Shown here in pieces: positions 15,625 through 61,016 of a DNA stretch of 64,000 nucleotides (the stretch's first letter is position 1; each line of letters opens with the position of its first letter). The notes under the pieces were generated by a model. The model was not told where the DNA came from. It saw only the letters and a list, made by a program, of their open reading frames with translations, and did not search any database. A program made the position numbers and the translations under genes. Source of the DNA: Terriglobia bacterium (lineage in GTDB: Bacteria > Acidobacteriota > Terriglobia > Terriglobales > Acidobacteriaceae). Location of the stretch: positions 124,001 through 188,000 of the forward strand of contig JAIQGF010000014.1 in NCBI GenBank assembly GCA_020072845.1, given 5' to 3'.

Positions 15625-15636
15625 GGTCATCCCCAT

Positions 15637-32875: not shown

Positions 32876-33877
<1,002 letters not shown>

Positions 33878-33887
33878 GGCTGCCCCC

Positions 33888-38122: not shown

Positions 38123-38132
38123 CGCATTCCCC

Positions 38133-39671: not shown

Positions 39672-39681
39672 GGTTCGCCTC

Positions 39682-40146
39682 CTACACGCGGTAACGCGTG
39701 CCTGCGGGTACCTCGTTGTCGGCATTGATCACGAGCTGGCCATCGGCAGCCCGGCTGATTTCCAGCCACGGCAGCGGACGCGGCGCCGGACCGCCCACCA
39801 CTTTTCCGCGATCGTCGAAACGTGATCCGTGGCAGGGACAGGCAAACCCCTGCTGGGCGCGCGAGACGATGCATCCCAGATGGGTGCAGGTGGTGGAGAT
39901 GGCGTAGAAGCCATCGTCGTCGCGGAACAGCACCAGGTTTTCATCGGAGAAGAGGGTTTCGCTGCCGGCCGTAAACTGCTCCGGCGCACCCAGCTTGAAG
40001 CGCCGCACCGGCCCTGGCAGTACCGCGGGGTTTGGCAGCCGGAACAGCCCCGCTGCCGCAGTGCCAACCGCGGCAAAGAAGCTGCCCAGCGACGCGATGC
40101 TGAGAAAACTTCGCCGGCTTACGCGGGGTGGGTCGAGACGGGACAT
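39682..40146 (-). CDS. Rieske iron-sulfur protein
   Basis: A 154-residue protein. The N-terminus has a twin-arginine motif VSRRSFLS and a membrane helix. The [2Fe-2S] ligands are in CTHLGC (Cys, His) and CPCHGS (Cys, His). The start ATG 40146 lies inside the end of the flavoprotein gene (28-base overlap), preceded by AAGGAG. It forms a bc-type quinol-oxidising module with the following cytochrome b. Confidence 0.94.
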   Translation of the reverse strand: MSRLDPPRVSRRSFLSIASLGSFFAAVGTAAAGLFRLPNPAVLPGPVRRFKLGAPEQFTAGSETLFSDENLVLFRDDDGFYAISTTCTHLGCIVSRAQQGFACPCHGSRFDDRGKVVGGPAPRPLPWLEISRAADGQLVINADNEVPAGTRYRV

Positions 40147-44228: not shown

Positions 44229-45483
44229 GCCCCCGCCAAGTCGCAAACGCCATGCAAGATGGGATGTTCTTCGGGATCGTATTCGCCGGTGTGAACATCG
44301 CCGAATGTTGTCGGTTGACCGGATTTCGGTTCAAACGGAACCTGGTCGACGTTGGCGTGTCGCGAACTGCGATCCTCGGCTGGAGTGCGGAACTCGTCAA
44401 AGCCGACGTTAATCCCTGCCTTTCGTGGCTCATACCCAGCCTGTTGCCAAGCAGCCTCGGCCTGCGCAACGGTCCCTCTAAAACTCCATATGGCGTTTAG
44501 CTCTTGGTGCCCGCCATGATTCTCGAATGTGAAGCTGAAACGACTATCTAGCTTCCCGCCTGCCGTTACGCCGCTGGTAGCACCGCTTCCCTGAATCCAA
44601 TATCCGGTGGACTTCGCTCCCTTCGCATCGGCGAAAGTCACACTCTTGCCGTCAAAGGTTCCGGTATATTTGTTGCGACTCTGATCCGTAAGATTTCCTT
44701 TCTCATCGCTCTTGATAACCGTTTTCCGGTAATCCCCATTCTCGTCTTTGTAGTACACGTAGCCGCCTTGGCACGTTGTGCCGTTGTTCTCTGAGCAGTT
44801 CTGATTGAAGTCGAGTCCTGTCGGGTCCGTGAGATTGATGGGGTTATTCCTAACGTAGGAGTAGAGGTTCCATTGCTGGGGATCCCTGATGCGCTTCTTA
44901 GTGATGAAGATGGGATCGGGCGTCATAAAGCGCCCGAGGCTGGAAGCATTATACCTGGCACCGAAGTTATCCAGTCCGCTCTCGCTATCCCGTTCTTTGC
45001 CGGTGAAGTGGCGTGGACTCGGATCGCTTCCTGAGCAGCTTTGCGCGTCGCCAAAGGGCAGATTCGTGCACCATTCGTGCAGGCCTCCATCCATTTGCGT
45101 ACGCGCGCGCTGCGTTCCCAGCCAATCTGAGTGTGTGAAGTACGTCGTCGCATCGGCATACGAGCCGATGTGGTGCCCGCCAGCGTAAATTTCGCCCCGT
45201 ATCCAGGACCCATCCGTGACGCTCAGCGTCGTTACGGCGCTGCCGCCGAGATCGTACAGATACTCGACGCTCTCCGTCCCCGTGCGTTTCACCCGACGCC
45301 CCTGCGCATCGTACACGTATGTGAAGCTGCCATTATCCCCCGAAATGATCCGGTTTTCAGCGTCGTAAACATACGTATGCGTACCGTCCGACAGCAGGTT
45401 GCCTGCAGCATCGTAGCTGTAGCCGTCAATACGGTTGTTCTGCTGGGTGAAGCTGAATGTTGGCGTCAGGCACGACCCGTTAT
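44222..45483 (-). pseudogene. RHS protein fragment: YD-repeat core end plus variable tip
   Basis: About 420 codons open from the junction at 45483. YD repeats (DGYSYDAAGNLLSDG, FTYVYDAQGRRVKRTG) lead to the RHS core end HFTGKERDSESGLDNFGARY, then GRFMTPDP and LYSYVRNNPINLTDPTG. After this conserved end comes a unique tip of about 190 residues (NQNCSENNGTTCQGGYVYY onward), the expected toxin domain, of unknown activity. The N-terminal secretion parts are missing. A frameshifting 154-base deletion separates it from the beta-repeat segment upstream. Confidence 0.75.
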
Positions 45484-46168
45484 GGGAGCGTAAGTCAGCG
45501 TATAGCTGTAGGGCGTGTAAGTTCCTGGGTCGCTGCCCCCGGTCAACGCTGCCCCTGACGGAGTTGCCGGAAACGATGTGCCGGTAAAATTCGAGTTCCC
45601 GGTACTGGACGAAGCAGACAGTGAGTAATTGACAGTGGATCCAACTGCCTTTGTGGCCAACGCCAACGTCCCACCCGCCGCAGTCGCCGTTACTGGCGAT
45701 CCGGAATCGCCATTAAAAGCGACGGCCAGCGCCGAGGCCAGCGAAGAGGGGGTTGAAGATTGTCCATAAGACACCGACTTCGCAGTCCCATTTACGGTGG
45801 CCGTGATCGTCCCGGTGTCGTAGACGGTGTTGTACACCGCGTTCTGACCGCCCGTCAGGCTCGCCCCCGAATTGCTGGGCGTAAACGAGGAGTTCGCGAA
45901 ATTGCCGGAGCTGAACGTGTACGACGACGACAGTGAATAATTGCTCGCTGTGCCCGTGGTTTTGGCGGTCAAGTTCACGGTGGCCGAATTCGCATTTGCG
46001 GTTACCGCCGCCGCGCCGTCACCGTTGATCGCCGACGCCAGGGACGAGGCGATTCCGGCCGCCGTCGAGCCCTGTCCCCACGACACCGAGTTGGCATGGC
46101 TATTGACGGTAATTGTCATTGTCCCTGCGTCGTACACGGGGACGCCGATGTCGTGTCCACCGGTGAGC
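45466..46168 (-). pseudogene. RHS-associated beta-repeat segment, locus 1 (fragment)
   Basis: About 230 codons containing two copies of a Ser/Thr/Ala-rich repeat of about 100 residues (TITVNSHANSVSWGQGST, INGDGAAAVTANANSATV, YSLSSSYTF, SGASLTGGQNAVYNTVYD). It ends out of frame at the 45483 junction and is cut off on the other side at 46168, where cytochrome sequence begins on the opposite strand. It has no start codon or signal. The same segment is repeated at 59741-60425. Confidence 0.7.
45484..46168 (-). repeat. 685-bp direct repeat, copy 1
   Basis: This block matches 59741-60425 without gaps, at roughly 95% identity by eye (scattered single-base differences, and a cluster near 45890-45930). 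Both copies are in the same orientation, 14,257 bases apart. Homology begins at GGGAGCGTAAGTCAGC and stops abruptly after CCACCGGTGAGC. Confidence 0.85.
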
Positions 46169-46598: not shown

Positions 46599-47993
46599 TC
46601 AAGAAATGCTCGCGAGCTCTTTCTTGCCGGCCGTTGCCTCTTGCGCCTCGTGATGGGCCTCCAAAGTCAGGTCTCGCGTTCCCAGCTGCACCCCAATTTT
46701 CTTCAGGAAGTCATTGGGCGGAGAGCCGCCGGCAAAGATCCACACGAAATCGTTGGTGATTTCGTGTCGCTCGCCCTTGACGTCGAGTATGACGGCGTCC
46801 TGCCGGAACTCGATCGGCTTGGAATTGAAGATCACCTTGACCTTGCCCGAGCGCATGCACTTCTCGATGCGCTCGAGGTTCCGGGCCTTGATGCGGGCAA
46901 AGCTGTCCTGACGGTAGGAGAGCGTGACCAGGTTGCCGACCTGGTTGGCCAGTCCCATCGCCGCCTCGACCGCGCTGTCGCCACCGCCGACGATCAAGAT
47001 CTTCTTGTAGACGTAGTGATCGGCCTCGATCAGCCGGTACATGACTTTCGGCAGGTCTTCGCCTGGGACGCCGAGTTTGCGGGGAGTGCCGGTTTTGCCG
47101 AGTGCCAGCACGACGGCCCGCGAGCGGTATTGGGCTTTCGAGGTAACGATCGAAAACAAGCCGTCAGGCCCTCTTTGAATGTCTTCGACCTTCTCACCGC
47201 TGCGGACCTGGAAATCGGCGCGCTGCATGACCTTCTGCCAAAACGCCAGCAGGCTTTCCTTGGAGAGTTCCATCTTCTTGAACTTCCCGTACATGGGAAA
47301 TTCGACCGGGGTGGTCATCACCAGTTTCTGGCGGGGAAATTTCGCCACCGTGCCTCCCACCTGGTCCTGCTCGATGGTGACGTAGTTCAGCTTGTTCTCA
47401 ATCGCTCGCAGCGAGGCGCTGATGCCGGCGGGACCGGCTCCGACGATGAGGACGTCGCAAACGCCGGGAATTTCGCGGCGCGCATGCTCGCTCGTGAGGC
47501 GACCGGCTATGGTGTCGATGCAGTCACGACCCTGGTTGACGGCATTCTTGATCAACGCCAGCCCGCCCAGCTCTCCCACGATAAAAAGATTCCGGACGTT
47601 GGTTTCGTACTCGGGAGTCAGGAAAGGCATCTCGGCGCCCATGCTCGGGGTGGCCATGACCATGGTGATGGCGCCCACGGGACAGACTTCCGCGCACAAG
47701 CTGTGGCCGACGCACTTGTATCCGTTGATGATGGCGGCCTTGCCCCCAACCATCCCCAGCACGTCTCCTTCGGGACAGACCGTGGTACAACTCTGACAGC
47801 CAATGCAATAGGTGACGTCAATGTGCGGATGCTGGGCTCTGGGACCTCCAGAGAACAACTTCCCTTTTTCCGCGGCCGCTTGCCACCGCGCTTCCTTTTT
47901 CTTCAGGCCCTTCAGGTAGCCGCGCACGAAGAACAGCAGCACCGCGCCGGCGATCGCATACGATACGAGTGAATCCAAGCCCCAGGCCATCAT
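46599..47993 (-). CDS. Membrane-tethered ferredoxin/FAD-NAD(P) oxidoreductase
   Basis: A 464-residue protein. An N-terminal membrane helix (about residues 5-25) is followed by a [4Fe-4S] pair, YCIGCQSCTTVCPEGD and KCVGHSLCAEVCPVGAIT. Then comes a thioredoxin-reductase-like flavin domain with FAD motif LIVGAGPAGISASLRAIE and NAD(P) motif ILIVGGGDSAVEAAMGLA. The CxxC redox disulfide of thioredoxin reductase is absent. ATG 47993 overlaps the upstream stop (ATGA). As last gene of the multiheme operon it is the likely cytoplasmic electron-entry protein. Confidence 0.87.
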   Translation of the reverse strand: MMAWGLDSLVSYAIAGAVLLFFVRGYLKGLKKKEARWQAAAEKGKLFSGGPRAQHPHIDVTYCIGCQSCTTVCPEGDVLGMVGGKAAIINGYKCVGHSLCAEVCPVGAITMVMATPSMGAEMPFLTPEYETNVRNLFIVGELGGLALIKNAVNQGRDCIDTIAGRLTSEHARREIPGVCDVLIVGAGPAGISASLRAIENKLNYVTIEQDQVGGTVAKFPRQKLVMTTPVEFPMYGKFKKMELSKESLLAFWQKVMQRADFQVRSGEKVEDIQRGPDGLFSIVTSKAQYRSRAVVLALGKTGTPRKLGVPGEDLPKVMYRLIEADHYVYKKILIVGGGDSAVEAAMGLANQVGNLVTLSYRQDSFARIKARNLERIEKCMRSGKVKVIFNSKPIEFRQDAVILDVKGERHEITNDFVWIFAGGSPPNDFLKKIGVQLGTRDLTLEAHHEAQEATAGKKELASIS

Positions 47994-48925
47994 AGATATC
48001 CCAACATCCACACCACGCCGATGTGGAAAATGGCCAGGACCGCAAACGAGTAGCTGAAGGGCTTGTGGACCACGTGCCAGAGGTGAAACACCCGCTGCGC
48101 GCGCGAAAGAAACGCCAGGCGCTTGGACAGGGAAGAGTAATCGCGGGCAGCGGCGACCGCTTTTTCCAGCTCCACGTGTGAGCTTTGAAACAGGCCGCCA
48201 AGCGTGGACAGCCATTCCATGCCGCTCAAGGTCCGGCGGCGCAGGCGAGCGATGCGAAAGGGTCGAATGAGGTCCAGAAAAATCATGTATCCAAGTGCCA
48301 CAACCACGGGCATGCGCGCTACCTGAGCTTCCGTGGGGACGTCAAACAGGGCCCACAGGTCGGTTTGCCGGATCAGGCGCTGCGACGCAAGCGCATCGGC
48401 ATACTGCTCCTGCATGTCGCGCGTTTCGCCGAGCGACAACTCCGCCGCGGTCACGCGCCGCGGTATCTGGCCGTAGAGATAACGGCCAACCACGCCGCTC
48501 AACGCGACCGCGGTCATGATCCAGAACGCCATGCCGGCAAAACCGCGGAATTTAAACGACCCGTGGAAGGCGATCACGAAGGGCGCAAAGACTCCGAGCA
48601 GGACGTGGAAATCCATCCAGTGCTTGGTGCTTCCTTGGCGCGACAGCCACGCCCAGCGCTTGCGCAGCGGGTACAAAAAGATCACGAGAAACATCAGCAA
48701 GCCGATCACGCCGAGCTTGATCCCGATGGCGCCGCTCGGCTTGAGCAGCGCGTGCTTGGCAGAGTACGGGCGTTGCGCCGCGTCGAGGGTGTAGTAGTCG
48801 AATCCGTAAATGGCCACGCTGAATATAACGGTCAGGGCGGCGGCATACCCGACGATAAGGCGAACGGCATGGCCGCTGAGCGAAAATCGGGGCAGTGTGG
48901 GTTGCGCGATGGAGGTGGTGCTCAT
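47990..48925 (-). CDS. Multi-helix membrane cytochrome b-like protein
   Basis: A 311-residue integral membrane protein with about five to six helices. Candidate heme-ligand histidines lie in helices: MDFHVLLGVFAPFVIAFHGS in the middle, and FHLWHVVHKPFSYSF with AVLAIFHIGVVWM at the C-terminus. The pattern resembles ferric-reductase or cytochrome b561-like four-helix cores. ATGA overlaps couple it to the genes on both sides. It is placed to carry electrons from the flavoprotein across the inner membrane to the periplasmic multiheme cytochromes. Confidence 0.78.
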   Translation of the reverse strand: MSTTSIAQPTLPRFSLSGHAVRLIVGYAAALTVIFSVAIYGFDYYTLDAAQRPYSAKHALLKPSGAIGIKLGVIGLLMFLVIFLYPLRKRWAWLSRQGSTKHWMDFHVLLGVFAPFVIAFHGSFKFRGFAGMAFWIMTAVALSGVVGRYLYGQIPRRVTAAELSLGETRDMQEQYADALASQRLIRQTDLWALFDVPTEAQVARMPVVVALGYMIFLDLIRPFRIARLRRRTLSGMEWLSTLGGLFQSSHVELEKAVAAARDYSSLSKRLAFLSRAQRVFHLWHVVHKPFSYSFAVLAIFHIGVVWMLGYL

Positions 48926-49701
48926 GGTTTGGCCTTCACAGTTTCCTCGACGCTGACGTCGAAATGCTGGTAGCCGCGGAAGCGGTGGACGTTGCGCCAG
49001 TGCTGGCGCGCGGTTTCAACCTCCACTGTGGCCACCGACGGCAAGCGCAGGGTCGCATCCACGCCGCGCAAGGTGACCGGGGCGTACTCCACATCGGTGC
49101 GCAGCACGCGCAGTCCGATGTCGTCCATGCTCTGCGAAAGCTCGGCTTCGATGCGGACGATACTGCCGGACTCGGGATCAATCCATGCCGTACCGGTCAG
49201 GTCGAGGGGATATTCCCGGCCGCGGAGAACAAGCTCCGTGGTGGACGGCTTGTTCGGGCGATGGCGGAACCGGACCTTGGCGAGGGTCTGCCCCTTCGCG
49301 TCGTCCATTTCAGGCGGTGAAAAATCGAAACTATCCTGGTAGGACGGATGAAATACCAGCAGCAGGGTGGCGAAACCGTTGGTCACCAGCATCGGGACAC
49401 TGGTCTTCTTGGCCGCACCCTGCTGTTCGAGGCGCGATTCCTGCAAGCTCAGGTCTGATCCTGATTCCTGCGCGATGACCAGGTAATCGTAGACCGATTT
49501 TTCCTGGTGCTCGACTTTGCCGCGTTTCGTGAGCTTGATTTGCGAGACCTCTTCCGTGCAACGCACTTCTGAAAACAGCTTGATGAAGTTCCCAACCTGC
49601 GCGCGCGTGCGATCAACAATGTCGGCGGGCTGCTTGTCGGCAGCGGGCGCGGCCAGCGCGCAGAGCAACAGCGGGCATAGGAGCAGACGGACCAGTCTCA
49701 T
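48922..49701 (-). CDS. Periplasmic protein, possibly LolA/LppX-like fold
   Basis: A 259-residue protein with a Sec signal peptide from ATG 49701 (AGGAG 8 bases upstream), cleaved near LAAPAAD. The mature part alternates long beta strands (YDYLVIAQESGSDLSLQES, AWIDPESGSIVRIEAELSQ) typical of half-barrel lipoprotein carriers. I do not recognise a named family. It is coupled by ATGA to the outer-membrane barrel gene upstream and the cytochrome b downstream, so a role in assembling or bridging that complex is likely. Confidence 0.65.
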   Translation of the reverse strand: MRLVRLLLCPLLLCALAAPAADKQPADIVDRTRAQVGNFIKLFSEVRCTEEVSQIKLTKRGKVEHQEKSVYDYLVIAQESGSDLSLQESRLEQQGAAKKTSVPMLVTNGFATLLLVFHPSYQDSFDFSPPEMDDAKGQTLAKVRFRHRPNKPSTTELVLRGREYPLDLTGTAWIDPESGSIVRIEAELSQSMDDIGLRVLRTDVEYAPVTLRGVDATLRLPSVATVEVETARQHWRNVHRFRGYQHFDVSVEETVKAKP

Positions 49702-52193
49702 GGAGCCACTCCTATCCGGGAGCGATTGTCGAAGCGGTAGCCGAGGGTAAGGATCCACTGGTCGTAATCGAGAACGCCGCCCCGCTGCGTGGTGAAGTCG
49801 CCCTGGAGGAAGTAGTGGCGGGCGAACGAAGCATCGACCGACGAATTGATAAACCGGGATGCGCCCTGGGCGCTATAGGTAGATACCAGCGTCTGCCGGC
49901 CTGCCTGGATCTGCCAGTGCAGGGAGTCGCCAAAGTTCCGCGACAACGCCAGCGACCGGTAGCTGCCCGAGCCGAATGAGCTGTCGAACTTGGAGGCGCG
50001 CACGTCAGCCCGCAGGCCGGTCTTCCAGATGTGGTCCCAACTGACGCCGTACAACTGGTTGATCGAGGTCTTCTGGTCTCCCGTGCGCTCGCTGCGGCCG
50101 ATGTCGGTGTACACCGAGACGTGCCGCACCGGTTCGACGCGCACGCCTGCGCTCAGGCCCTGGAAAAGATACTTGTCCACCAGCCCGGTGCTGATCAGTT
50201 GCACCGAAAAACTGGGAACATCGCGGAAGTAGTTGTGGTTCAGGTCGAAGGAAATGCGCGGGTGCGGCTGGAAACGCAACGTAGTATAGCTGCGGCTCAG
50301 GCCAGCGCCTGCCCGAGTGACGCCCGGCGCAGGACGCGGATCATCAGCCTGGGCCGATTGATAGATGGAGAAGTAGCGTTTGAAAAAGATTCCGTTCTCG
50401 AAAAATATGAAGGGGCGATCGAGTATCCAGCCCAAGCTGCTCAGCGCCACGCCCGACGTGCTGGTGTAATGCACCGAGTCGAAGCTGCCGCCCTCGAAGT
50501 TGACGAACACGCCGGCGATGCGGCGGTCGGGGTTGTAATCCCAGGAGGTCGGGTCGGGTGTGGACCCGGCAAACATGCCGGCTGTCGCTCCGTGCCCGAG
50601 CTTGCGGCCGACGTAGCCGCCATCGATGGTGTCGAGGCTGCTGGCCCACGGCAGGTACAGGCGGCCGAAACCGGCCACCCAAGTTGATTTCGGGTTATCG
50701 TAGCTGACGCTGAGGTGATAGGTGCGATTGATCAGGTCTTGCAGGGTTTGCTGGCCGGCGTAGGAGCTGCTGGTGAGACGGCCGCGCCAGTATCCGCTCA
50801 TGTTCCAGTAGGTGCCGCCGATGCGCGTAATATCCGCCCGCAGCACGCCGCCGATCTGAGAGCTGCTGGATGCGACCGAGCCGTGGCTGCTGATGCCGCT
50901 GTAATCGAGCCCGACCCGCCCGCGCGCCCGGTTCACCTCCGGCAGCGGCGGGCGCGGAATTTCCTCGCGCGCCTCTTCGTCCAGCGGGTCGCCTTCGCTG
51001 AACGTCACCACTTGCGGATACTTGCGCTGTCCACCAACAGCGCGTGCTTGAGCGAGGGCTTCGGCGTCAAGCTCGGAAAGGTAAGCGATGTCGCCGGCAC
51101 GAATTTCACCGGTTGCGCTCTTCACGTCACATACGGCAGAGGTCGCCGCAACCGAGGCAACTTCCAGTTCGGCCACTGCCACCATGTCCTTGGCCGCCCC
51201 GGAATCAACGCGCCGCTTAATGGTGAGCTTGGTTCCCTGCGCGAGGCCGGCAGCACGGCCGCCGATGAGGTACACGGCATCCTGACCGACGTACTTTACT
51301 TTGAAGTCGGTCTGGATATTGAGCGCGGGCGGCAGCAGCACGGCATCAACCTGAACCGGTTGCGCAGGTTGCGCTGGAGAAACCGGTGACGGCTGCGGCT
51401 GTGCCTGCGGTATAGGCGCTGGTCGTGGCCCTGCATTTGGCACGGGCGCCGGCTGTGACGGTTGAGGCGGCGGCAGCAATGTGGCATCAAAAGATTGCGC
51501 AGGTTGCGCGGGAGAAACGGGCGCAGGCGGCTTCGGAGCTGGCTTTGCCTCGGGTGCCGCTGGCGTCGCCGGCTGGCTTGATTTTGTTGCTGGCTCCAAT
51601 GGCGGTGCTGCTGTTGGCGGCTGTTTTGCAACGGGCGAGGGTTTCGGCAGCGGCCCCTCTGTGGGCGCTTGCGCGGCGCGTGAACGGAAGATTTGCGACA
51701 GCGAGAGTTGCTGGCTGGCGGGTGTTGCCCCTCGCGATGGGCGTGCAACCGGAGCGGCCTGCGCTATCGTTTGCCCGGAACGCTGCGCTGGAGCTTGCAC
51801 CGCGAGTTCCAGGTGAAACAGCGGTCGTCGCGGCAATGTGTGCAGCGCGCGCAGCAGGTTGCGCTCCTGCACGATTCGCCTTGCCTGCTCGCCCAAGGAG
51901 TTGCTGTCGGCATCGGTGGCCTGCGGTTGGTCGGTTGGCTGCGGCTGCAGCGCTTTCCGTGCTTGCTCCGCCAACGATTCCTGGCCCGACGCCTGCGATT
52001 GGCTTGGTAGCTGTTTTGCCTGCAGCACCTTCTTGGCCTGTTCAGCTAAGGACTGCTCCTGTTGGGCGGCGCCCACTCCGGCACTCGCAAGCAGAACGCA
52101 CATCACTTGTGCCAGCCTCGCGGCGTCACGCGCCCGCAACACTTGCTTCCCAGATCGAATTCTTGTCCACATGTTTCGCCCAGCTTGCCCCAT
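49698..52193 (-). CDS. Outer-membrane beta-barrel protein with Pro-rich stalk
   Basis: An 831-residue exported protein with signal cleavage near ASAGVGAAQ. Three copies of a [SG]LAEQA[KR]K-like motif lie around residues 48-110. A stalk of about 150 residues rich in Pro, Ala and Gln (twice SPAQPAQ...LLPP) leads to a small globular region, and the last 380 residues have alternating aromatic/polar strands ending LTLGYRFDNRS, as in beta-barrels. Start ATG shares one base with the 34-heme cytochrome stop (TAATG). It is a candidate porin or sheath for the multiheme cytochromes, comparable in role but not clearly in sequence to MtrB/PioB. Confidence 0.75.
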   Translation of the reverse strand: MGQAGRNMWTRIRSGKQVLRARDAARLAQVMCVLLASAGVGAAQQEQSLAEQAKKVLQAKQLPSQSQASGQESLAEQARKALQPQPTDQPQATDADSNSLGEQARRIVQERNLLRALHTLPRRPLFHLELAVQAPAQRSGQTIAQAAPVARPSRGATPASQQLSLSQIFRSRAAQAPTEGPLPKPSPVAKQPPTAAPPLEPATKSSQPATPAAPEAKPAPKPPAPVSPAQPAQSFDATLLPPPQPSQPAPVPNAGPRPAPIPQAQPQPSPVSPAQPAQPVQVDAVLLPPALNIQTDFKVKYVGQDAVYLIGGRAAGLAQGTKLTIKRRVDSGAAKDMVAVAELEVASVAATSAVCDVKSATGEIRAGDIAYLSELDAEALAQARAVGGQRKYPQVVTFSEGDPLDEEAREEIPRPPLPEVNRARGRVGLDYSGISSHGSVASSSSQIGGVLRADITRIGGTYWNMSGYWRGRLTSSSYAGQQTLQDLINRTYHLSVSYDNPKSTWVAGFGRLYLPWASSLDTIDGGYVGRKLGHGATAGMFAGSTPDPTSWDYNPDRRIAGVFVNFEGGSFDSVHYTSTSGVALSSLGWILDRPFIFFENGIFFKRYFSIYQSAQADDPRPAPGVTRAGAGLSRSYTTLRFQPHPRISFDLNHNYFRDVPSFSVQLISTGLVDKYLFQGLSAGVRVEPVRHVSVYTDIGRSERTGDQKTSINQLYGVSWDHIWKTGLRADVRASKFDSSFGSGSYRSLALSRNFGDSLHWQIQAGRQTLVSTYSAQGASRFINSSVDASFARHYFLQGDFTTQRGGVLDYDQWILTLGYRFDNRSRIGVAP

Positions 52194-54757
52194 TAGCCGC
52201 CGCCACCGTTCTTATGGCAGGAGTAGCAGTTCGTGCTGTTCCAGACGAAGCCTTTGACGCCTGAGTGTTGCGAGGTGGTTTGCGCCTGCGTATGGCACTG
52301 GGTGCATAGGAACACGGTGTAGTCAGAAGGATTGGTGTGGCAGTCGCTGCACAACTGCGCCGAGTGGTGCGGAATCTTGAACCAGGTGTGATTGAACGTC
52401 GCACCCGCCCAGGTGGTGGTGGTGTGGCACGTCTGGCAGGTGGTGGGGAATCCCGCCGCGACGTGGTTCGGGTTAGTGACGGTCTGGTACTCGGTCTTGT
52501 GACACGAATAACAGTCGGTCGGCGTGCCCGCGTATTTTCCGTTGATATGGCAACTGGCGCAGGCCACGCTGGTGTGCGCGCCGGTCAGCGGGAAGGCCGT
52601 CTGGCTGTGATTGAAGGTTGAGGGCTGCCAGGCAGTGGTCGAGTGGCAGACCTCGCACTGCTGCGGGAACCCGGCCGTGACGTGATTCGGATTCGTGGTT
52701 GAGTTGTAGTTCTTCAGGTGGCAGGACACGCAGGCGGTATTGGCCGCCGTCAGCATGACCGCGCCATGGCAAGACGAGCAGTTCAGGGTGGTATGCGCGC
52801 CGGTCAGCGCCCACCCCGTGGTCGCGTGATTGAACGTCGCACCCAGCCAGTTGGTGGTGCTGTGGCACAACGAGCAATCCGTCGGGAAGCCAACCGCGAT
52901 GTGATTCGGATTAGTCGTCTGCTGGTAGGTCGACATGTGGCACGACGAGCAGGCTGCGTTGGCGGCGGTGAGCGGAGTGCCCGCGTGACACGCGGAACAG
53001 GGTTGAGTGGCATGCGCGCCGGTCAACGCAAAACCGGTGGTCGCGTGATTGAAGGTGGCGCTCAGCCAGTCGGTGGTGCTGTGGCAGGTCTGGCAGGTCG
53101 TCGGGAAAGCGACCAGCGTGTGATTCGGATTGGTTGTCTGCTGGTACGTCGACATGTGGCACGACGAGCAGACCGCGTTGGCGGCAGTGAGCGGAGTGCC
53201 CGCGTGGCACGCGGAACAAGGTTGGGTGGCGTGCGCGCCAGTCAGCGCAAAACCCGTCGTCGCGTGATCGAACGTCGCGCTCAGCCAGGTCGCTGTGCTG
53301 TGGCACTGCGTGCAGTTCGTCGGGAAAGCGACCACCGTGTGATTCGGGTTCGTGGTCTTCTGGTAGTCCGCCAAGTGGCAGGAGGAACAGGCGGTCGAGA
53401 TGGCGGTGTAGGTTCCGCCGGTGTGGCACTGCGTGCAGGGCACCGTGGTGTGCGCGCCGGTCAGCGGGAACGCCGTCTTGCTGTGGTCGAACGAGGCTGG
53501 CTGCCAGGCAGTCGTCGTGTGGCAGATGTTGCACTGCTGCGAGAACCCGCCCGTCACGTGGTTTGGATTGGTGGTTTTGTTGAAATCGTTCAGGTGGCAC
53601 GACACGCAGGTGGTGTTCGCTGCGGTCAGTATCCCGCCGGTATGGCAGGCCGAGCAATTCAGGGTGGCGTGCGCGCCGGTGAGCGCAAAACCGGTGCTGG
53701 CATGATCGAATGTCGCGCCCAGCCAGGTGGTCGTGTTGTGGCACAGCGTGCACTGTTGCGAGAACCCGATGGTGACGTGATTCGGATTCTGCGTCCCGTT
53801 GAAATCGTTGAGGTGGCACGACACGCAGGTGGTATTCGCCGCGGTCAGTGTCCCGCCGGTATGGCAGGCCGAGCAATTCAGGGTGGCGTGGGCGCCGGTG
53901 AGGACGAAACCGGTGCTGGCATGATCAAATTTCGCGCCCAGCCAAGTGGTCGTGCTGTGGCACTGCGAGCAGGTCTGCGCGAATCCGATCTTGACGTGGT
54001 CGGGGTCCTTGGCGCCGTTGTAGTCCTTGGCGTGGCAACCGATGCAGTTTGTCGGCGTGCCCTGGTAGCGCCCGCCCACGTGACAGGCGACGCAGTCCAG
54101 TTGGGCGTGCGCGCCGGTCAGGGGGAAACCGGTGAAGGCCGCATGATCAAAGCGCGCGCCCGCCCACGAGTCCATCGTGGTGTGGCACTGTTGGCACTGC
54201 GTCGGAAATCCCAAGGCAGTGTGACTGGGCGATTTCGTGCTGAGGTACGAATTCATGTGACAGCCGACGCAATCGGTGGACAGTCCCTGGTACTGGCCGA
54301 CGGCGGCGCCTTTGTGGCAGGACTCGCAATCGGCGACCGCGTGCGCGCCGATCAGCGGGAAGCGGTTCTGGTGCTCGCGAATGGATTTCAGCGAGATCGT
54401 CCAGCCGTTGACGCTGTGGCATTGCTCGCACTGCGCTCCCATCTGGCGGCGGTGAATGTCGGCATGGCAATCGGCGCACTTGTTGCCCACGTTGGCAAAC
54501 ACCGCATTGGTATGGCACTGCTGGCAGGCAACGTCCTTGTGCAGGCCGCGCAACGGGTACCGCGTCTTGTTGTGATCGAATTCCGGCACTTTGCGGATCG
54601 GCTTCCAGCCGCTAAACGTGTGGCAGTTCTGGCAGGGAATGTCGAGCTTGCCGTGGGGGCTGCGCGTGGTTTCAGGCACACGCGGTGGCTGCGCTGGAAC
54701 GCCACCAAGCGTGGTCAGCAGCAACAGAACGAATTGAATTGCCAGTGTCGACACCAA
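52193..54757 (-). CDS. 34-heme c-type cytochrome made of triheme repeats
   Basis: An 854-residue exported protein (signal peptide about residues 1-22) with 34 CXXCH motifs by count. From residue 188 to 773 it consists of eight tandem 73-residue modules, each with three hemes and the frame GFPTxCxxCHSTTTW, then FDHATTGFALTGAH, then CSACH...LTAANTxCVSCH. A looser ninth module precedes them and a partial one follows. Heme lysines and aromatic residues repeat in register. The start is TTG 54757 with AAGG upstream, or GTG 54754. It is likely a periplasmic or surface molecular wire. Confidence 0.92.
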   Translation of the reverse strand: MVSTLAIQFVLLLLTTLGGVPAQPPRVPETTRSPHGKLDIPCQNCHTFSGWKPIRKVPEFDHNKTRYPLRGLHKDVACQQCHTNAVFANVGNKCADCHADIHRRQMGAQCEQCHSVNGWTISLKSIREHQNRFPLIGAHAVADCESCHKGAAVGQYQGLSTDCVGCHMNSYLSTKSPSHTALGFPTQCQQCHTTMDSWAGARFDHAAFTGFPLTGAHAQLDCVACHVGGRYQGTPTNCIGCHAKDYNGAKDPDHVKIGFAQTCSQCHSTTTWLGAKFDHASTGFVLTGAHATLNCSACHTGGTLTAANTTCVSCHLNDFNGTQNPNHVTIGFSQQCTLCHNTTTWLGATFDHASTGFALTGAHATLNCSACHTGGILTAANTTCVSCHLNDFNKTTNPNHVTGGFSQQCNICHTTTAWQPASFDHSKTAFPLTGAHTTVPCTQCHTGGTYTAISTACSSCHLADYQKTTNPNHTVVAFPTNCTQCHSTATWLSATFDHATTGFALTGAHATQPCSACHAGTPLTAANAVCSSCHMSTYQQTTNPNHTLVAFPTTCQTCHSTTDWLSATFNHATTGFALTGAHATQPCSACHAGTPLTAANAACSSCHMSTYQQTTNPNHIAVGFPTDCSLCHSTTNWLGATFNHATTGWALTGAHTTLNCSSCHGAVMLTAANTACVSCHLKNYNSTTNPNHVTAGFPQQCEVCHSTTAWQPSTFNHSQTAFPLTGAHTSVACASCHINGKYAGTPTDCYSCHKTEYQTVTNPNHVAAGFPTTCQTCHTTTTWAGATFNHTWFKIPHHSAQLCSDCHTNPSDYTVFLCTQCHTQAQTTSQHSGVKGFVWNSTNCYSCHKNGGGG
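52439..54430 (-). repeat. Tandem 219-bp triheme-coding repeats
   Basis: Coding repeats within the 34-heme cytochrome. CXXCH first-positions recur at residues 188, 263, 336, 409, 482, 555, 628, 701 and 774, an exact 73-residue (219-base) period except for the first step of 75. A more divergent unit starts at residue 110. Units 5 and 6 are the most alike, suggesting recent duplication. Confidence 0.9.
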
Positions 54758-55152
54758 GCGCCTTGCACTTTCCCGATGGAATCCACTTCCCAGGTTCGGT
54801 CCCTTGGTCGGCTGTGAACTACCCCACGACAGCGGCTGCGGGAGACTTCTTCGCGGCTCGCTGGCATCCCTGGCGCGCTCATCCCTAAACGCGCGATAGG
54901 AGAGGGTGTTGTTGAAGCACTACAAGCAATTCCCTCGCCGTCGACAGTACCGTTTTAGTGTGGGGCGGGGAAGATTACGAAATCCCGTGTACCAGCGGCC
55001 ATCGCGAATGCCAGAGGGTAATCGTCCTGCCGATCAATTGAGGAGGTTGGATACGAGAAGGCGTGAAAATTTCACCTGATTCCAGCAAAACTTGCATGCT
55101 GTTGAAAACATTCACCTGCGGCTAGCGGCACGACACGATTGCCGGGTGCTTG
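54758..55152. other. Intergenic region between the two multiheme genes
   Basis: About 395 bases with no convincing gene. It probably contains a second promoter for the 34-heme gene, since the 23-heme gene upstream is separated from it here while the genes after 54757 overlap one another. Around 55060-55120 it is AT-richer, with AAAATTTCACCTG and an echo AACATTCACCTG. No T-run terminator seen. Confidence 0.45.
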
Positions 55153-57153
55153 TTAGCTGCCGGCGCGAGGCGCGGCCGGCGAGGTTACCGCCGGCCCGTG
55201 GCAAGCCTCGCATTGCACGGGAGTGAGCTTGTAGTACAACACGTCGCTTCCGTTCACGGTTTTGATATTGCTGTGGCAACGGACGCAGCGGACGTTCCGG
55301 TGCACGCCCTCGAGCGGCAAGCGGGTGCGGTTGTGGTCAAACAGGGAAGGCTTCCACTTGTTGCTGTTGTGGCAGCTTTCGCATTTTGGGGATGTCGCGG
55401 CAGTAGCGAACTGGCCGGCGTGGACATCCTTGTGGCAGCCCTCGCATGTATTCGGCGCGGTTCGGAAATCAACGTTTGCCAGGTTGGTTTCAAGATTCGG
55501 CGGCTTGTGGCAATCCGCACAGGCGACTCCGCGGTGAGAGCCGATCAGGACGAATTTTGTGGAAGCGTGGTCGAAGCGCGACAACTCCTTCCACGACGAT
55601 TGCGAATGGCATGCTTCGCAGCCGCCTGGCTTACCCGCGCTGGTCTTCAGCATGCGTTCCGCGAATTGACCCCGATGCGGGTCGCGGTGGCAGGCGGTGC
55701 AGGAGCGGTCCTCGAACCGGTAACGTGCCACTTTTTCGAAGCTGCCTTCTCCGGTTGGTTTATGACAATCGCCGCAAGCGACCGCCAGGTGACCGCCGGC
55801 GAGCGTGAAACGCGAGGTCTTGTGCCGCTCCAGGGTGAAGGTTGAGGGCCGGAATCTCTGCACCGTGTGGCAGGACTCACACCGGTTCAGGGTAGGAGCG
55901 GCGGCGAACTGCCGGTCATGCGCGTCTTTATGGCAGTCGGTACACAGGCCGAACTTGATGCGATAGAGAGTCGCCTTGCCCGCGGGAAGGTGGCATTTTT
56001 CGCAACCGACTGAGGCGTGCTTGCCCTCGAGCGGGTACGCAGTCGCCTTGTGCTCGACCAGCCCGAACTTGGCCGGTTTGAAGCCTTCCACGGTGTGGCA
56101 GCCTTCGCATTCCCCTTTATCCGCACGCTTGGCGAATTGCCCTGAGTGGGGATCGGGACGGTGGCAATCAGAGCACTTCCGGAACGCGACCGGCTTCTTG
56201 AAGTCACCACTCGCGTGACATTGCTCGCAGCGCAGCAGCGCGTGTTTGCCCAGCAAGGGGTATTTCGTGGTCGCGTGATCGAACTTGCCCGCCAGTACGG
56301 CCGGCGCCACCGACTTCCAGGTTACGGTGCTGTGGCACGATTGGCAGGAATTGACAAAGGTGCCGCGGTGCGGGTCGGCGTGGCAGCCGGTGCAGCGATC
56401 GAAGATCAGCCCGGTCCAGCGCGGAGCTCCGCCTCGCTCCGCCGGTGTATGGCACTTTTCGCAGAGTACGCGCGCGTGCGCCCCGGTAAGAGCGTAGCGC
56501 GTACGCGCGTGATCGAACTTAGGGACGTTCTTCCAGTCGTTGGTGGTGTGGCACTGTTCGCAAGTGCGGCCCAGTTGCTCGCGATGCGGATCCTTGTGGC
56601 AGGCGACGCAATCGCGGGAGAGGCCGAGATAAGTGCGGCCCAGGTCCTTCATTTTGATCAGCGGTTTTTCAGCTGCCACGATGAAGGCCGGCATATGACA
56701 GCGGTTACAACTCAGGGCCGCGTGTTTTCCGGTTAAGGGCCAACCTGCCTGGGCGTGATCAAACTGCTGCCGCGAAGGCTCCCACTTGATAAGCGGAAAC
56801 TGCTCACCATTGTGGTCGGAGTGGCAACGGGCGCAGGTCTGGCTGCCGGCGCTTTTGGCCACGGAGCGGGCGTGGAAGCCGCGCCCGGCGGCGATCCTGC
56901 CGGCGATTTCGCTGTGACAGTCCAGGCACTTGAACGTGGCCTGCCCGCCGAGGCGATGACAGCTGGTGCAGTTGGTTGCGCCCTCCAGGAAACGGTGAGA
57001 GCTGGAGAGGGGGCCGGGAGAAATTTGGGCTCGAGCGGTGCCGGCACACAGCAGGATGGCCGCAATACCAGCCAGGCGCAGCACGGCCCGGATGCCAAGG
57101 GACAAACCGCACAAAACGGAAGTGGCGCTCCAGTCTTCGTGTCGCTGTGCCAA
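55153..57153 (-). CDS. 23-heme c-type cytochrome
   Basis: A 666-residue protein with 23 CXXCH motifs by count and an N-terminal signal ending near AGTARAQ (about residue 43). Modules resemble those of the 34-heme protein but are less regular: pairs such as CHKDPHREQ, CHADPHRG and CHRPDPHSGQF alternate with FDHARTRYALTGAH-type linkers carrying the distal His. It resembles cytochrome c3/c7-type repeat cytochromes. The apparent start is TTG 57153, with a weak ribosome-binding site. It is the first gene of the conduit operon. Confidence 0.9.
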   Translation of the reverse strand: MAQRHEDWSATSVLCGLSLGIRAVLRLAGIAAILLCAGTARAQISPGPLSSSHRFLEGATNCTSCHRLGGQATFKCLDCHSEIAGRIAAGRGFHARSVAKSAGSQTCARCHSDHNGEQFPLIKWEPSRQQFDHAQAGWPLTGKHAALSCNRCHMPAFIVAAEKPLIKMKDLGRTYLGLSRDCVACHKDPHREQLGRTCEQCHTTNDWKNVPKFDHARTRYALTGAHARVLCEKCHTPAERGGAPRWTGLIFDRCTGCHADPHRGTFVNSCQSCHSTVTWKSVAPAVLAGKFDHATTKYPLLGKHALLRCEQCHASGDFKKPVAFRKCSDCHRPDPHSGQFAKRADKGECEGCHTVEGFKPAKFGLVEHKATAYPLEGKHASVGCEKCHLPAGKATLYRIKFGLCTDCHKDAHDRQFAAAPTLNRCESCHTVQRFRPSTFTLERHKTSRFTLAGGHLAVACGDCHKPTGEGSFEKVARYRFEDRSCTACHRDPHRGQFAERMLKTSAGKPGGCEACHSQSSWKELSRFDHASTKFVLIGSHRGVACADCHKPPNLETNLANVDFRTAPNTCEGCHKDVHAGQFATAATSPKCESCHNSNKWKPSLFDHNRTRLPLEGVHRNVRCVRCHSNIKTVNGSDVLYYKLTPVQCEACHGPAVTSPAAPRAGS

Positions 57154-59576: not shown

Positions 59577-60926
59577 GAGCCGTTATATGTGTTCTGGTGC
59601 CAGCGATTGCCGTACCGGTCGTAATCCCAACTGCATCCCGAGCCGTTCGTCGCCACGGCCGTCTTGAGCCGGTTGAAGGTGTCGTAGGTGTACGTCCAGC
59701 TACCGTTCACTGAGTCATTGGCATTGAGAATATCGCCGTTGGGAGCGTAAGTCAGCGTATAGCTGTACGGCGTGTAAGTTCCTGGGTCGCTGCCCCCGGT
59801 CAATGCTGCCCCTGACGGAGTTGCCGGGAACGATGTGCCGGTAAAATTCGAGTTCCCGGTACTGGACGAAGCGGACAGTGAGTAATTAACCACCGATCCA
59901 ACCGCCTTGGTGGCCAACGCCAACGTCCCACCCGCCGCAGTCGCCGTTACTGGCGATCCGGAATCGCCGTTAAAAGCGACGGCCAGCGCCGAGGCCAGCG
60001 AAGAGGGGGTTGAAGATTGTCCATAAGACACCGACTTCGCAGTCCCATTTACGGTGGCCGTGATCGTCCCGGTGTCGTAGACGGTGTTGTACACCGCGTT
60101 CTGCCCGCCCGTCAGGCTCGCCCCCGAATTGCTGGTCGTAAACGAGGAGTTCGAGAAATTCCCGGACGCAAAGGTGTACGACGACGACAGTGAATAATTG
60201 CTCGCTGTGCCCGTGGTTTTGGCGGTCAAGTTCACGGTCGCCGAATTCGCGTTTGCCGTTACCGCTGATCCGCTATCGCCGTTGATCGCCGACGCCAGGG
60301 ACGAAGCGATTCCGGCCGCCGTCGAGCCCTGTCCCCACGAAACCGAATTAGCATGGCTGTTGACGGTAATCGTCATTGTCCCTGCGTCATACACGGGGAC
60401 GCCGATGTCGTGTCCACCGGTGAGCGTTCCGCCAGAGTTAGTGTACGAAAAAGACGCGTAACTGAAGTTGCCGGAATCGTACGTGGTCCCCGAGGACAAG
60501 CTGTAATTCGTTGACGCGCCGGAAGTCTTCGCCGTCAGAGTAACCACCGAGCCGGAAGCGCTGGCGGTTACCGGCGCATTCGAATCGCCGTTGACGCTGG
60601 AAGCTAATCCCGCGGCGATGGTCGAACTCGTTGCGCCCGATCCCCAATTGAGGGAATTGGCGTGACCATTGACGGTGACGGTCATCACTCCCGCATCGTA
60701 GACGGTCGTGTACTGCGCGTCCTGACCTCCGGTCATTGTCGATCCAGAGTTGCCGGTGAAAGACGAACTGCCAAAGTTCGACGTGTCGTACGAGTATCCC
60801 GACGACAGCGTGAAGTTTTGCGCAGCTCCGGTCCCCTTGGAGGTCAGATAGACCGTGGTGCCTGATGGAGATGCAGTGGCCGGAGCGCCGCCATCCGCAT
60901 TGATCGTGCTTGCCAGGTTGGAAGAA
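59564..60926 (-). pseudogene. RHS-associated beta-repeat segment, locus 2
   Basis: About 450 codons open from the tRNA-Ser boundary. There are four units of a Ser/Thr-rich repeat of about 100 residues (MTVTVNGHANSLNWGSGATS, VTASASGSVVTLTAKTSG, NYSLSSGTTY, GGTLTGGHDIG), then the first YD repeats (GSWTYTYDTFNRLKTAVATN, WDYDRYGNRWHQNTYNGS). There is no start codon or signal: the frame simply begins a few bases after the tRNA CCA. The product would be an adhesin-like extracellular part of an RHS protein, now truncated at both ends. Confidence 0.7.
59741..60425 (-). repeat. 685-bp direct repeat, copy 2
   Basis: Gap-free match to 45484-46168 in the same orientation. In this copy the sequence continues as RHS coding on both sides, so this is the less damaged version. 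Confidence 0.85.
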
Positions 60927-61016
60927 TGGCGGAGAGAGAGGGATTCGAACCCTCGATACGGTTTCCCGTATACACGCTTTCCAAGCGTGCGCCTTCAGCC
61001 ACTCGGCCATCTCTCC
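60927..61016 (-). tRNA. tRNA-Ser (GGA)
   Basis: A complete 90-base class II tRNA on the minus strand: acceptor GGAGAGA/TCTCTCC, D arm with GCCGAGTGGCTGAAGGC, anticodon loop TTGGAAA (anticodon GGA) on stem ACGC/GCGT, long variable arm TATACGGGAAACCGTA, T arm with GGTTCGAATCC and an encoded CCA. RHS sequence starts directly after the CCA. Confidence 0.97.

What the first reader, a model, noticed from the sequence alone, without database searches (positions are those of the whole stretch)
46599..57153. Six-gene predicted electron conduit with 23- and 34-heme cytochromes
Seen: 23-heme protein, 34-heme protein, outer-membrane barrel with Pro-rich stalk, periplasmic beta protein, membrane cytochrome b, and membrane-tethered 2[4Fe-4S]/FAD/NAD(P) protein, all on one strand. 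The last five genes are joined by TAATG or ATGA overlaps. Known: porin-cytochrome complexes (Mtr, Pio, Pcc) move electrons across the outer membrane. Inference: this is a complete NAD(P)H-to-surface chain in an acidobacterium, with a barrel and cytochromes not evidently homologous to Mtr/Pcc parts.
Basis: partly seen in the sequence, partly recalled or inferred. Interest (0 to 1): 0.9.

Follow-up and report, generated by a model that had tools for sequence, protein, structure and literature searches.

The report
Likely electron conduit in soil bacteria
Six neighbouring genes of an acidobacterium probably build a heme-lined wire through the whole cell envelope; it looks like a relative of a conduit type (PCC3) proposed for iron-oxidising bacteria, with an added entry enzyme that resembles NAD(P)H-using flavoproteins.

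Summary
The cluster is conserved: the best 80 of 412 cytochrome b relatives found are all Acidobacteriota, and a set without the periplasmic gene sits on an Emticicia plasmid (Bacteroidota). AlphaFold gives a 22-stranded barrel unrelated by sequence to MtrB/PioB. But the kind is known: gene content, heme numbers and WX3HX13H/SGXXG motifs match "PCC3", described in 2017 from Proteobacteria. Apparently new: the phyla; a near-constant 23-heme partner (52 of 61) beside one of 19-79 hemes that numbers 3k+1 in 49 of 51 close relatives (tandem triheme modules); an NAD(P)H-type flavoprotein with His for Cys in its second cluster motif; a LolA-like helper. Direction and donor are inferred. Homology with proteobacterial PCC3 was not testable. 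Exceptions: seven of 70 loci lack a nearby flavoprotein, and one has the 23-heme gene without barrel. Verdict: new variant of a known kind.

The parts
55153..57153 (-). 23-heme c-type cytochrome (cytA); likely periplasmic; start codon uncertain (TTG 57153, 57114 or 57105, or GTG 57084)
   Evidence: 23 CXXCH; 24 other His, net charge +33; start candidates; Pfam Cytochrome_C7/c3; 23 motifs in 52 of 61 complete homologous ORFs
52193..54757 (-). 34-heme c-type cytochrome (cytB) made largely of 73-residue triheme modules; likely outer face or extracellular
   Evidence: 34 CXXCH, spacing 32-16-25 repeated; 219-nt direct repeats; 41% Ser+Thr+Ala+Gly, 25.1 aa per heme
52539..53933 (-). 219-nt (73-residue) triheme repeat array inside cytB (best part)
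   Evidence: the repeat finder D1, 6 copies at 219-nt spacing; DNA identities 55-84% among modules 2-9
49698..52193 (-). outer-membrane barrel protein: signal-like N-terminus, three SLxEQA motifs, Pro-rich stalk, FlgT_C-like domain, 22-stranded barrel
   Evidence: AlphaFold2 mean pLDDT 75.7 over the last 551 residues; FlgT_C in 25 of 63 members, the window's own not among the reported; fold matches to outer-membrane barrels; motifs
48922..49701 (-). periplasmic LolA/LolB-superfamily protein (longest ORF starts 49758; likely start ATG 49701)
   Evidence: AlphaFold2 mean pLDDT 90.1; VIA Z 10-11 to LolA-superfamily chains 3bk5, 4z48, 9tp6, 3buu
47990..48925 (-). inner-membrane cytochrome b, PCC3-type IMP with two WX3HX13H and SGXXG
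   Evidence: W103/H107/H121, S143-G147, W283/H287/H301; both WX3HX13H in 26 of 27 aligned members, one in the other
46599..47993 (-). membrane-tethered Fe-S/FAD/NAD(P) oxidoreductase (YpdA/TrxR-like domain, no CXXC in it)
   Evidence: Pfam Pyr_redox_3, Fer4 families; hydrophobic N-terminal segment; motif survey

Best explanation
The six genes encode an acidobacterial variant of the PCC3 porin-cytochrome conduit. Inferred path: NAD(P)H (or ferredoxin) is oxidised in the cytoplasm by the tethered FAD/Fe-S protein; electrons cross the inner membrane through the two b-hemes of the 311-aa protein; the 23-heme protein, of nearly fixed length, carries them across the periplasm; they pass the outer membrane inside or beside the 22-stranded barrel; the 34-heme protein, whose length evolves in triheme steps, carries them to the outer face or beyond, to an acceptor such as Fe(III) minerals or humics. 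The LolA-like protein probably helps assemble or lipidate outer-membrane parts. Shown by sequence or model: gene order, heme motifs, b-heme histidines, barrel fold, module duplication, conservation. Inferred: location of each cytochrome, the electron donor, outward direction, the acceptor, the helper's role.
For: Conserved unit: 42 of 46 loci with at least 9 kb upstream of cytb carry all four upstream genes, and the flavoprotein is within 3 kb of cytb in 63 of 70 loci with at least 2 kb downstream. All 60 of 60 loci with cytB also have the barrel, as do 14 of 14 type II loci that are long enough. The 23-heme protein (E <= 1e-50) occurs in 26 of 297 Acidobacteriota genomes, all 26 among the 40 that have the cytochrome b. 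The inner-membrane protein has the PCC3 motifs. Barrel model of 22 strands. Non-motif His (24 and 35) about equal the hemes (23 and 34), as bis-His ligation needs. Same set but for peri, with 23 and 40 hemes, on an Emticicia plasmid. In print PCC3 has a periplasmic cytochrome of median 21 hemes (21-27 in Gallionellaceae) and a variable, up to 85-heme extracellular one.
Against: No experiment on any member was found; the Sideroxydans CL21 paper (passages) calls PCC3 functionally unverified. Seven of 70 loci have no flavoprotein within 3 kb, so NAD(P)H entry is not universal. Four of 46 long loci lack one or more upstream genes: L080 and L115 lack cytA, L105 lacks cytB, L148 lacks cytA, cytB and barrel; L129 has cytA, cytb and flavo alone. 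One genome splits the trio from the cytb-flavo pair. PCC3 is discussed mainly for Fe(II) oxidation, the opposite direction. O. bavaricus, a relative of the isolate O. savannae that carries the cluster, did not grow anaerobically. Neither cytochrome shows a standard lipobox by eye, so how the second one reaches the surface is open. Homology with proteobacterial PCC3 proteins was not testable.
Confidence: 0.65

Rival explanations
1. Same conduit, opposite direction: electrons from Fe(II) or another outside donor flow inward through the 34-heme and 23-heme proteins to the cytochrome b and the quinone pool, as proposed for PCC3 in iron oxidisers; the flavoprotein then makes NAD(P)H by reverse flow or is an accessory.
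For: He et al. drew PCC3 as an uptake pathway and found it in Sideroxydans and Leptothrix (passages); 26 Gallionellaceae genomes have a complete set (passages); 5 of 70 loci show no flavoprotein.
Against: The window encodes benzoyl-CoA degradation, as in a heterotroph that must shed electrons; the NAD(P)H-type flavoprotein overlaps the cytochrome b gene here; NAD(P)+ reduction from Fe(II) needs energy input that no part of the cluster evidently supplies (inference).
Confidence: 0.2
2. Not a trans-membrane conduit but an electron store: the two cytochromes sit in the periplasm as a capacitor charged by the cytochrome b, and the barrel is an ordinary channel that happens to be co-transcribed.
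For: Capacitor roles have been suggested for such proteins (passages); no contact between cytochromes and barrel is shown; L129 has the 23-heme gene without barrel.
Against: The barrel accompanies cytB in 60 of 60 and 14 of 14 loci; the conserved set has no evident transporter.
Confidence: 0.1
3. The inner-membrane pair works like an NADPH oxidase or ferric reductase: NAD(P)H passes electrons directly through the two b-hemes to the wire without quinone. (A version of the best explanation, so the odds overlap.)
For: The two HX13H pairs are an attribute of ferric reductase/NOX domains per He et al.; Pfam Ferric_reduct at E 0.033, below its cut-off; overlap with an NAD(P)-type flavoprotein gene; distant relatives on Bradyrhizobium and Methylophaga plasmids lie between a 2Fe-2S protein and a 7-heme cytochrome.
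Against: No quinone site was tested; loci without the flavoprotein must use another donor.
Confidence: 0.3

Closest known systems
PCC3 (He et al. 2017, PMC5566968, passages read; Gallionellaceae members in PMC10734462, passages)
   Same: Porin, two very large multiheme cytochromes (one near 21-27 hemes, one variable), ~300-aa inner-membrane protein with SGXXG and two WX3HX13H motifs; low residues per heme; Thr/Ser/Ala/Gly-rich repeats in the variable one.
   Different: Here in Acidobacteriota and Bacteroidota, not Proteobacteria; NAD(P)-type Fe-S flavoprotein and LolA-like gene added; 23 hemes in the smaller one; 3k+1 pattern; barrel of 22 predicted strands with an FlgT_C-like domain and optional stalk, whereas PCC3 porins are reported with up to 42 predicted strands. 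Homology of porins and membrane proteins not tested.
MtrAB(C)/PioAB/MtoAB
   Same: Works alike in outline: barrel plus multiheme wire across the outer membrane.
   Different: Barrel not of PF11854; 23- and 34-heme rather than decaheme proteins. The same genome has two separate clusters with MtrB-type barrels.
Burkholderiales 24-/49-heme porin clusters (PMC7399161, passages)
   Same: Two large cytochromes beside a porin; [quoted passage not shown] that paper says they may share homology with the clusters of He et al.
   Different: Different phylum; no flavoprotein mentioned in the passages seen.
Acidobacterial PCCs already in print: Holophaga with MtrB- and ExtB/E-type porins (PMC7399161, passages); karst MAGs with decaheme PCCs and ferredoxin-NADP reductase genes, and a third group with undecaheme or more-than-20-motif cytochromes (PMC13264449, section 18 read)
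   Same: Porin-cytochrome clusters in Acidobacteriota, some beside a ferredoxin-NADP reductase.
   Different: The Holophaga ones are other porin families. Which phyla the >20-motif clusters come from is only in a figure I could not see; they may include this system.

Membership tests
PCC3 | Outer-membrane barrel gene clustered with two multiheme cytochrome genes | tested here: met
PCC3 | One multiheme cytochrome with about 21 hemes (21, 24, 27 in Gallionellaceae), called periplasmic | tested here: met
   23 motifs; published numbers. Location itself not tested
PCC3 | A second, variable cytochrome (published median 34), Thr/Ser/Ala/Gly-rich, repeated, 22-39 residues per heme, called extracellular | tested here: met
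   34 motifs, 41% S+T+A+G, 25.1 residues per heme, 219-nt repeats. Location itself not tested
PCC3 | ~300-aa inner-membrane protein with WX3HX13H twice and SGXXG | tested here: met
   All motifs in P0005; both WX3HX13H in 26 of 27 aligned members, the other has one; SGXXG in 27 of 27
PCC3 | That protein has five transmembrane helices, motifs on helices 3, 4 and 5 | tested here: inconclusive
   Hydropathy peaks at 21-39, 66-84, 106-124, 128-146, 293-311 fit; a further peak at 202-220 makes it five or six
PCC3 | Sequence homology of porin and inner-membrane protein to proteobacterial PCC3 | not testable with these tools
   No proteobacterial PCC3 record was reached: plasmid searches gave none and one search failed
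PCC3 | Porin with a large number of strands (up to 42 predicted) | tested here: inconclusive
   22 strands in the AlphaFold2 model; methods differ
MtrB/PioB/MtoB porins | Match to PF11854 MtrB_PioB | tested here: not met
   No PF11854 match in any of 63 members at E <= 0.5; whole-genome PF11854 search finds three stretches of two other genes, not this one
MtrA/DmsE decaheme cytochromes | Decaheme protein over the TIGR03508 cut-off | tested here: not met
   cytA 56.4 bits and cytB 31.8 against a cut-off of 192.2; 23 and 34 motifs
Geobacter OmbB-OmaB-OmcB (Pcc) and ExtABCD | Homology to OmbB or Ext porins | not tested
   No model for these porins was run
Thioredoxin reductase / bacillithiol disulfide reductase (flavoprotein) | Over the family cut-off, with redox CXXC for TrxR (CXXC criterion recalled) | tested here: not met
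   YpdA 175.6 of 339.9 bits, TrxR 84.2 of 343.45; CXXC after the Fe-S part in 1 of 83 homologues
LolA/LolB superfamily (periplasmic gene) | LolA-like fold | tested here: met
   Foldseek E 4e-6 to LolA3; Z 10-11, rmsd about 4 A over 177-188 residues. No LolA family among the Pfam matches, so fold only

The most novel reading that the evidence does not exclude
Acidobacteriota own a quinone-bypassing electron exporter: a NOX-like NAD(P)H-to-heme-b gate whose genes overlap those of an outer-membrane wire; the outer segment is lengthened or shortened in triheme steps (19 to 79 hemes in close relatives) while the periplasmic segment stays near 23 hemes, so that reach is tuned by tandem duplication. 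Most of the set also occurs on a Bacteroidota plasmid.
Probability: 0.3. Interest if true: 0.75.

Novelty: new variant of a known kind. Interest (0 to 1): 0.5.

Why it matters
Acidobacteriota are among the commonest soil and peat bacteria (recalled), and how they breathe when oxygen runs out is poorly known. If this cluster works as read, the many carriers (412 cytochrome b relatives in one pattern scan, of which only the best 80 were examined) could pass electrons to iron minerals or humics, which bears on carbon loss and methane in wetlands. The pattern of a near-constant 23-heme and a 3k+1 variable protein is a natural series for testing how wire length affects electron transfer. Two cultured strains are at hand: Occallatibacter savannae AB23 has all six genes and Emticicia oligotrophica DSM 17448 has all but the LolA-like one.

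Tried and rejected
Mtr/Pio membership: rejected. In the structure comparisons the listed rows include TonB-dependent receptors, OprD-type and general porins and ushers; MtrB does not appear among the 50 rows shown in either, which by itself shows nothing. Solved-structure sequence searches with the barrel profile (E <= 1) and with the 23- and 34-heme proteins (E <= 0.001) found nothing.

A viral-contig scan with the cytochrome b profile gave no relative. Plasmid searches with the 23-heme (E <= 1e-20) and 34-heme (E <= 1e-30) proteins found only Emticicia; the three other plasmid hits of the cytochrome b (Methylophaga, Bradyrhizobium, Roseomonas) are not this cluster.

Chance as a source of the motifs: rejected. 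A soluble barrel end: rejected. The idea that all cytB proteins follow 3k+1 is too strong: 49 of 51 complete single-ORF type I proteins do (exceptions 23 and 54), but only 8 of 13 type II ones, the other five being multiples of three. Six more complete type I ORFs from three loci with split cytB were left out of the 51, truncated ORFs were left out of all heme counts, the window's own gene was not in the counts, and duplicates by identical last 150 residues were dropped. By strict CXXCH alone and with the split ORFs, 44 of 57 type I ORFs fit. In the barrel profile search, later rounds include earlier hits; the type I profile alone (round 0) found 13 of the 14 type II barrels and Emticicia's at E <= 5e-4, the fourteenth (L062) appearing in round 1. 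Genes were mapped for 38 of the 42 places; G239, G003 and G246 were not fetched for this, and the fourth is the window itself.

Literature: paper searches (open-access library only, 9 of 10 searches used). None of the listings or passages seen names PCC3 in Acidobacteriota or Bacteroidota, but supplements and figures were not seen, and PMC13264449 may show members in its Figure 6.

Full report
What is there. The six genes lie on the minus strand at 46599-57153. In order of transcription: a 23-heme protein (cytA), a 34-heme protein (cytB), a barrel, a periplasmic protein (peri), a membrane cytochrome b (cytb) and a tethered flavoprotein (flavo). Heme motif counts are exact and far beyond chance. 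From cytB on, every junction is a TAATG or ATGA overlap; cytA stands 395 nt upstream. The window is a stretch of an unnamed 4.23-Mb genome. A genome of the same family (G202) matches a record titled Acidobacteriaceae in contig length and coordinates.

How conserved it is. The cytochrome b has a match (E <= 1e-10) in 40 of 297 Acidobacteriota genomes. Neighbourhoods of 38 of the 42 places were mapped. The nearest relatives (L034-L042, 'type I') have the same order of six genes, as far as their contigs reach. More distant ones ('type II', L044-L062) have cytb first, then flavo in some, cytA, cytB and the barrel, with some variation. A third group (L063-L070) has related cytb or flavo genes, mostly beside decaheme cytochromes and without this barrel. 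A scan of species genomes found 412 encoded relatives of the cytochrome b; only the best 80 were kept. All 80 carry titles of Acidobacteriota (names such as Bryobacterales and Candidatus Solibacter checked); some genomes appear twice. Of 46 such loci with at least 9 kb upstream, 42 have all four upstream genes. Of 70 with at least 2 kb downstream, 63 have flavo within 3 kb (4 of them on the other strand), 2 have it farther off and 5 have none. All 60 loci with a cytB hit have a barrel hit. The 23-heme protein at E <= 1e-50 is in 26 of 297 genomes, all of which also have the cytochrome b (against 15).

Exceptions. In G071 the cytA-cytB-barrel trio and the cytb-flavo pair lie on different contigs. 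L129 has cytA, cytb and flavo in a row and no cytB, barrel or peri in 16.8 kb; it is the only one of 48 loci with cytA that has no barrel. L148 has peri, cytb and flavo only; L080 and L115 have no cytA; L105 has no cytB and only a barrel fragment. So cytB and barrel travel together, and the inner half can stand apart from them.

Outside the phylum. A plasmid of Emticicia oligotrophica DSM 17448 (Bacteroidota) carries cytb (32% identity, E 2e-44), flavo (40%), a 23-heme protein (35%), a 40-heme protein (39%) and a barrel (22%, E 3e-11; 4e-20 by the type I profile), annotated as hypothetical, NAD(P)-binding or cytochrome c3 family proteins. None of the seven genes compared there matches peri.

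Heme numbers. cytA has 23 motifs in 52 of 61 complete homologous ORFs; three have 24 and six have fewer, some of these being split ORFs. cytB varies from 19 to 79 in type I and from 16 to 54 in type II. Of 51 complete single-ORF type I proteins, 49 have 3k+1 hemes, counting CX2-4CH; the exceptions have 23 and 54. In type II 8 of 13 fit and five are multiples of three. The reason is visible in the sequence: a 73-residue module with three hemes, spaced 32-16-25, repeated in tandem. Neighbouring modules 6 and 7 of the window are 84% identical in DNA, modules 3 and 4 82%; in a genome of the same genus (L034, 40 hemes) modules 8 and 9 are 90% identical. Length thus appears to change by tandem duplication.

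The other parts. The barrel core, folded with 62 homologues, gives a beta barrel that I count as 22 strands from the DSSP string, preceded by a small beta domain; mean pLDDT 75.7, pTM 0.59. The strand list shows no plug-like domain; coordinates were not inspected. FlgT_C (PF16538) matches 25 of 63 members and PF11854 none. Structure comparison lists outer-membrane barrels in general. Peri has a LolA/LolB-type fold at high confidence. The cytochrome b has W103-x3-H107-x13-H121, SGxxG at 143 and W283-x3-H287-x13-H301; among 27 aligned members these four His, H284 and G144/G147 are invariant. Flavo joins Fer4 and pyridine-nucleotide oxidoreductase domains. Its second cluster motif has His for the second Cys in 78 of 83 homologues, so '2[4Fe-4S]' needs testing.

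How it probably works. NAD(P)H gives electrons to the flavoprotein, then to two b-hemes, then to the 23-heme protein, then through the barrel to the 34-heme protein and an outside acceptor. The split of roles follows the published PCC3 model: the basic 23-heme protein would span a gap of fixed width, and the variable, near-neutral, Ser/Thr/Ala/Gly-rich one would be free to differ because it reaches outward. That is inference. The window's benzoyl-CoA pathway fits a cell that must unload electrons, but shows no link to this cluster.

What is known. He et al. 2017 named PCC3 from genomes of iron oxidisers: porin, extracellular cytochrome (median 34, up to 85 hemes), periplasmic cytochrome (median 21), and a ~300-aa membrane protein with SGXXG and two WX3HX13H motifs, in Alpha-, Beta- and Gammaproteobacteria (passages). 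A study of Gallionellaceae gives 21, 24 or 27 and 10-35 hemes (PMC10734462, passages). A 2025 paper calls its function unverified (PMC12442390, passages). I therefore file this as a PCC3-like variant on composition and motifs, with direct homology untested. Added features are the flavoprotein, the LolA-like gene, the 23 hemes, the 3k+1 pattern and the new phyla. The passages I read do not report these; unread supplements and figures may.

Scores. Interest 0.5: the kind is known and the mechanism inferred, but the spread through Acidobacteriota and the modular length series are worth following and testable in cultured strains.

Noticed in passing
window 9638-15636, minus strand: Anaerobic aromatic degradation: benzoyl-CoA reductase subunits B and C and 6-oxocyclohex-1-ene-1-carbonyl-CoA hydratase score over NCBIfam cut-offs; two ATPase-type subunits and a dehydrogenase lie beside them (by eye).
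   Followed up: partly
window 32876-39725, minus strand: Type II DMSO-reductase-family molybdoenzyme alpha and beta subunits (over TIGR03479 and TIGR03478 cut-offs) with a c-type cytochrome protein and a cytochrome b resembling ExtP/ExtQ below cut-off.
   Followed up: partly
G000:C7 (L198:8225-16373) and G000:C21 (L199:2608-13327): Two further porin-cytochrome clusters with MtrB_PioB barrels and 10-heme proteins; the first is near a molybdopterin oxidoreductase, the second has ORFs with 19, 11 and 7 heme motifs next to it.
   Followed up: partly
window 45483-45782 and 59740-60039: A 300-nt direct repeat, 96% identical, lies on either side of the cluster in remnants that look like YD-repeat (Rhs-type) genes by eye; the cluster may have entered or could leave by recombination.
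   Followed up: no
G000:C3, L033:8273-8557: A fragment of a second cytochrome b copy, 72% identical over 95 residues, with none of the other five genes found in the 18 kb around it; likely a relic.
   Followed up: yes
L063-L067, L070 (other Acidobacteriota): Flavoproteins of about 790-810 aa beside 10-heme cytochromes; the one scanned (L063) joins cyclic-nucleotide-binding domains and several Fe-S motifs to an NAD(P)-type oxidoreductase. Resembles the ferredoxin-NADP-reductase-linked decaheme group of PMC13264449.
   Followed up: partly
L155:12877-16367 and L156:10073-13427 (plasmids of Bradyrhizobium BTAi1 and Methylophaga pinxianii): Distant cytochrome b relatives sit between a 2Fe-2S protein and a 7-heme cytochrome, like a smaller version of the inner-membrane module.
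   Followed up: partly
window 51867-52052 (barrel residues 48-109): Three SL(A/G)EQA(R/K)xx(L/V)Q motifs follow the signal-like start of the barrel protein; purpose unknown.
   Followed up: no
G073:C15:45293-47164 (L202): A lone second 23-heme-type gene, 65% identical, with one TGA inside and none of the other genes matched in the 17 kb fetched apart from cross-hits of cytB to it.
   Followed up: partly
L129:3891-8193: cytA, cytb and flavo directly in a row with no cytB, barrel or peri on the 16.8-kb locus: either a reduced version or a different use of the inner half.
   Followed up: partly
window 60927-61016: tRNA-Ser (GGA), minus strand.
   Followed up: no
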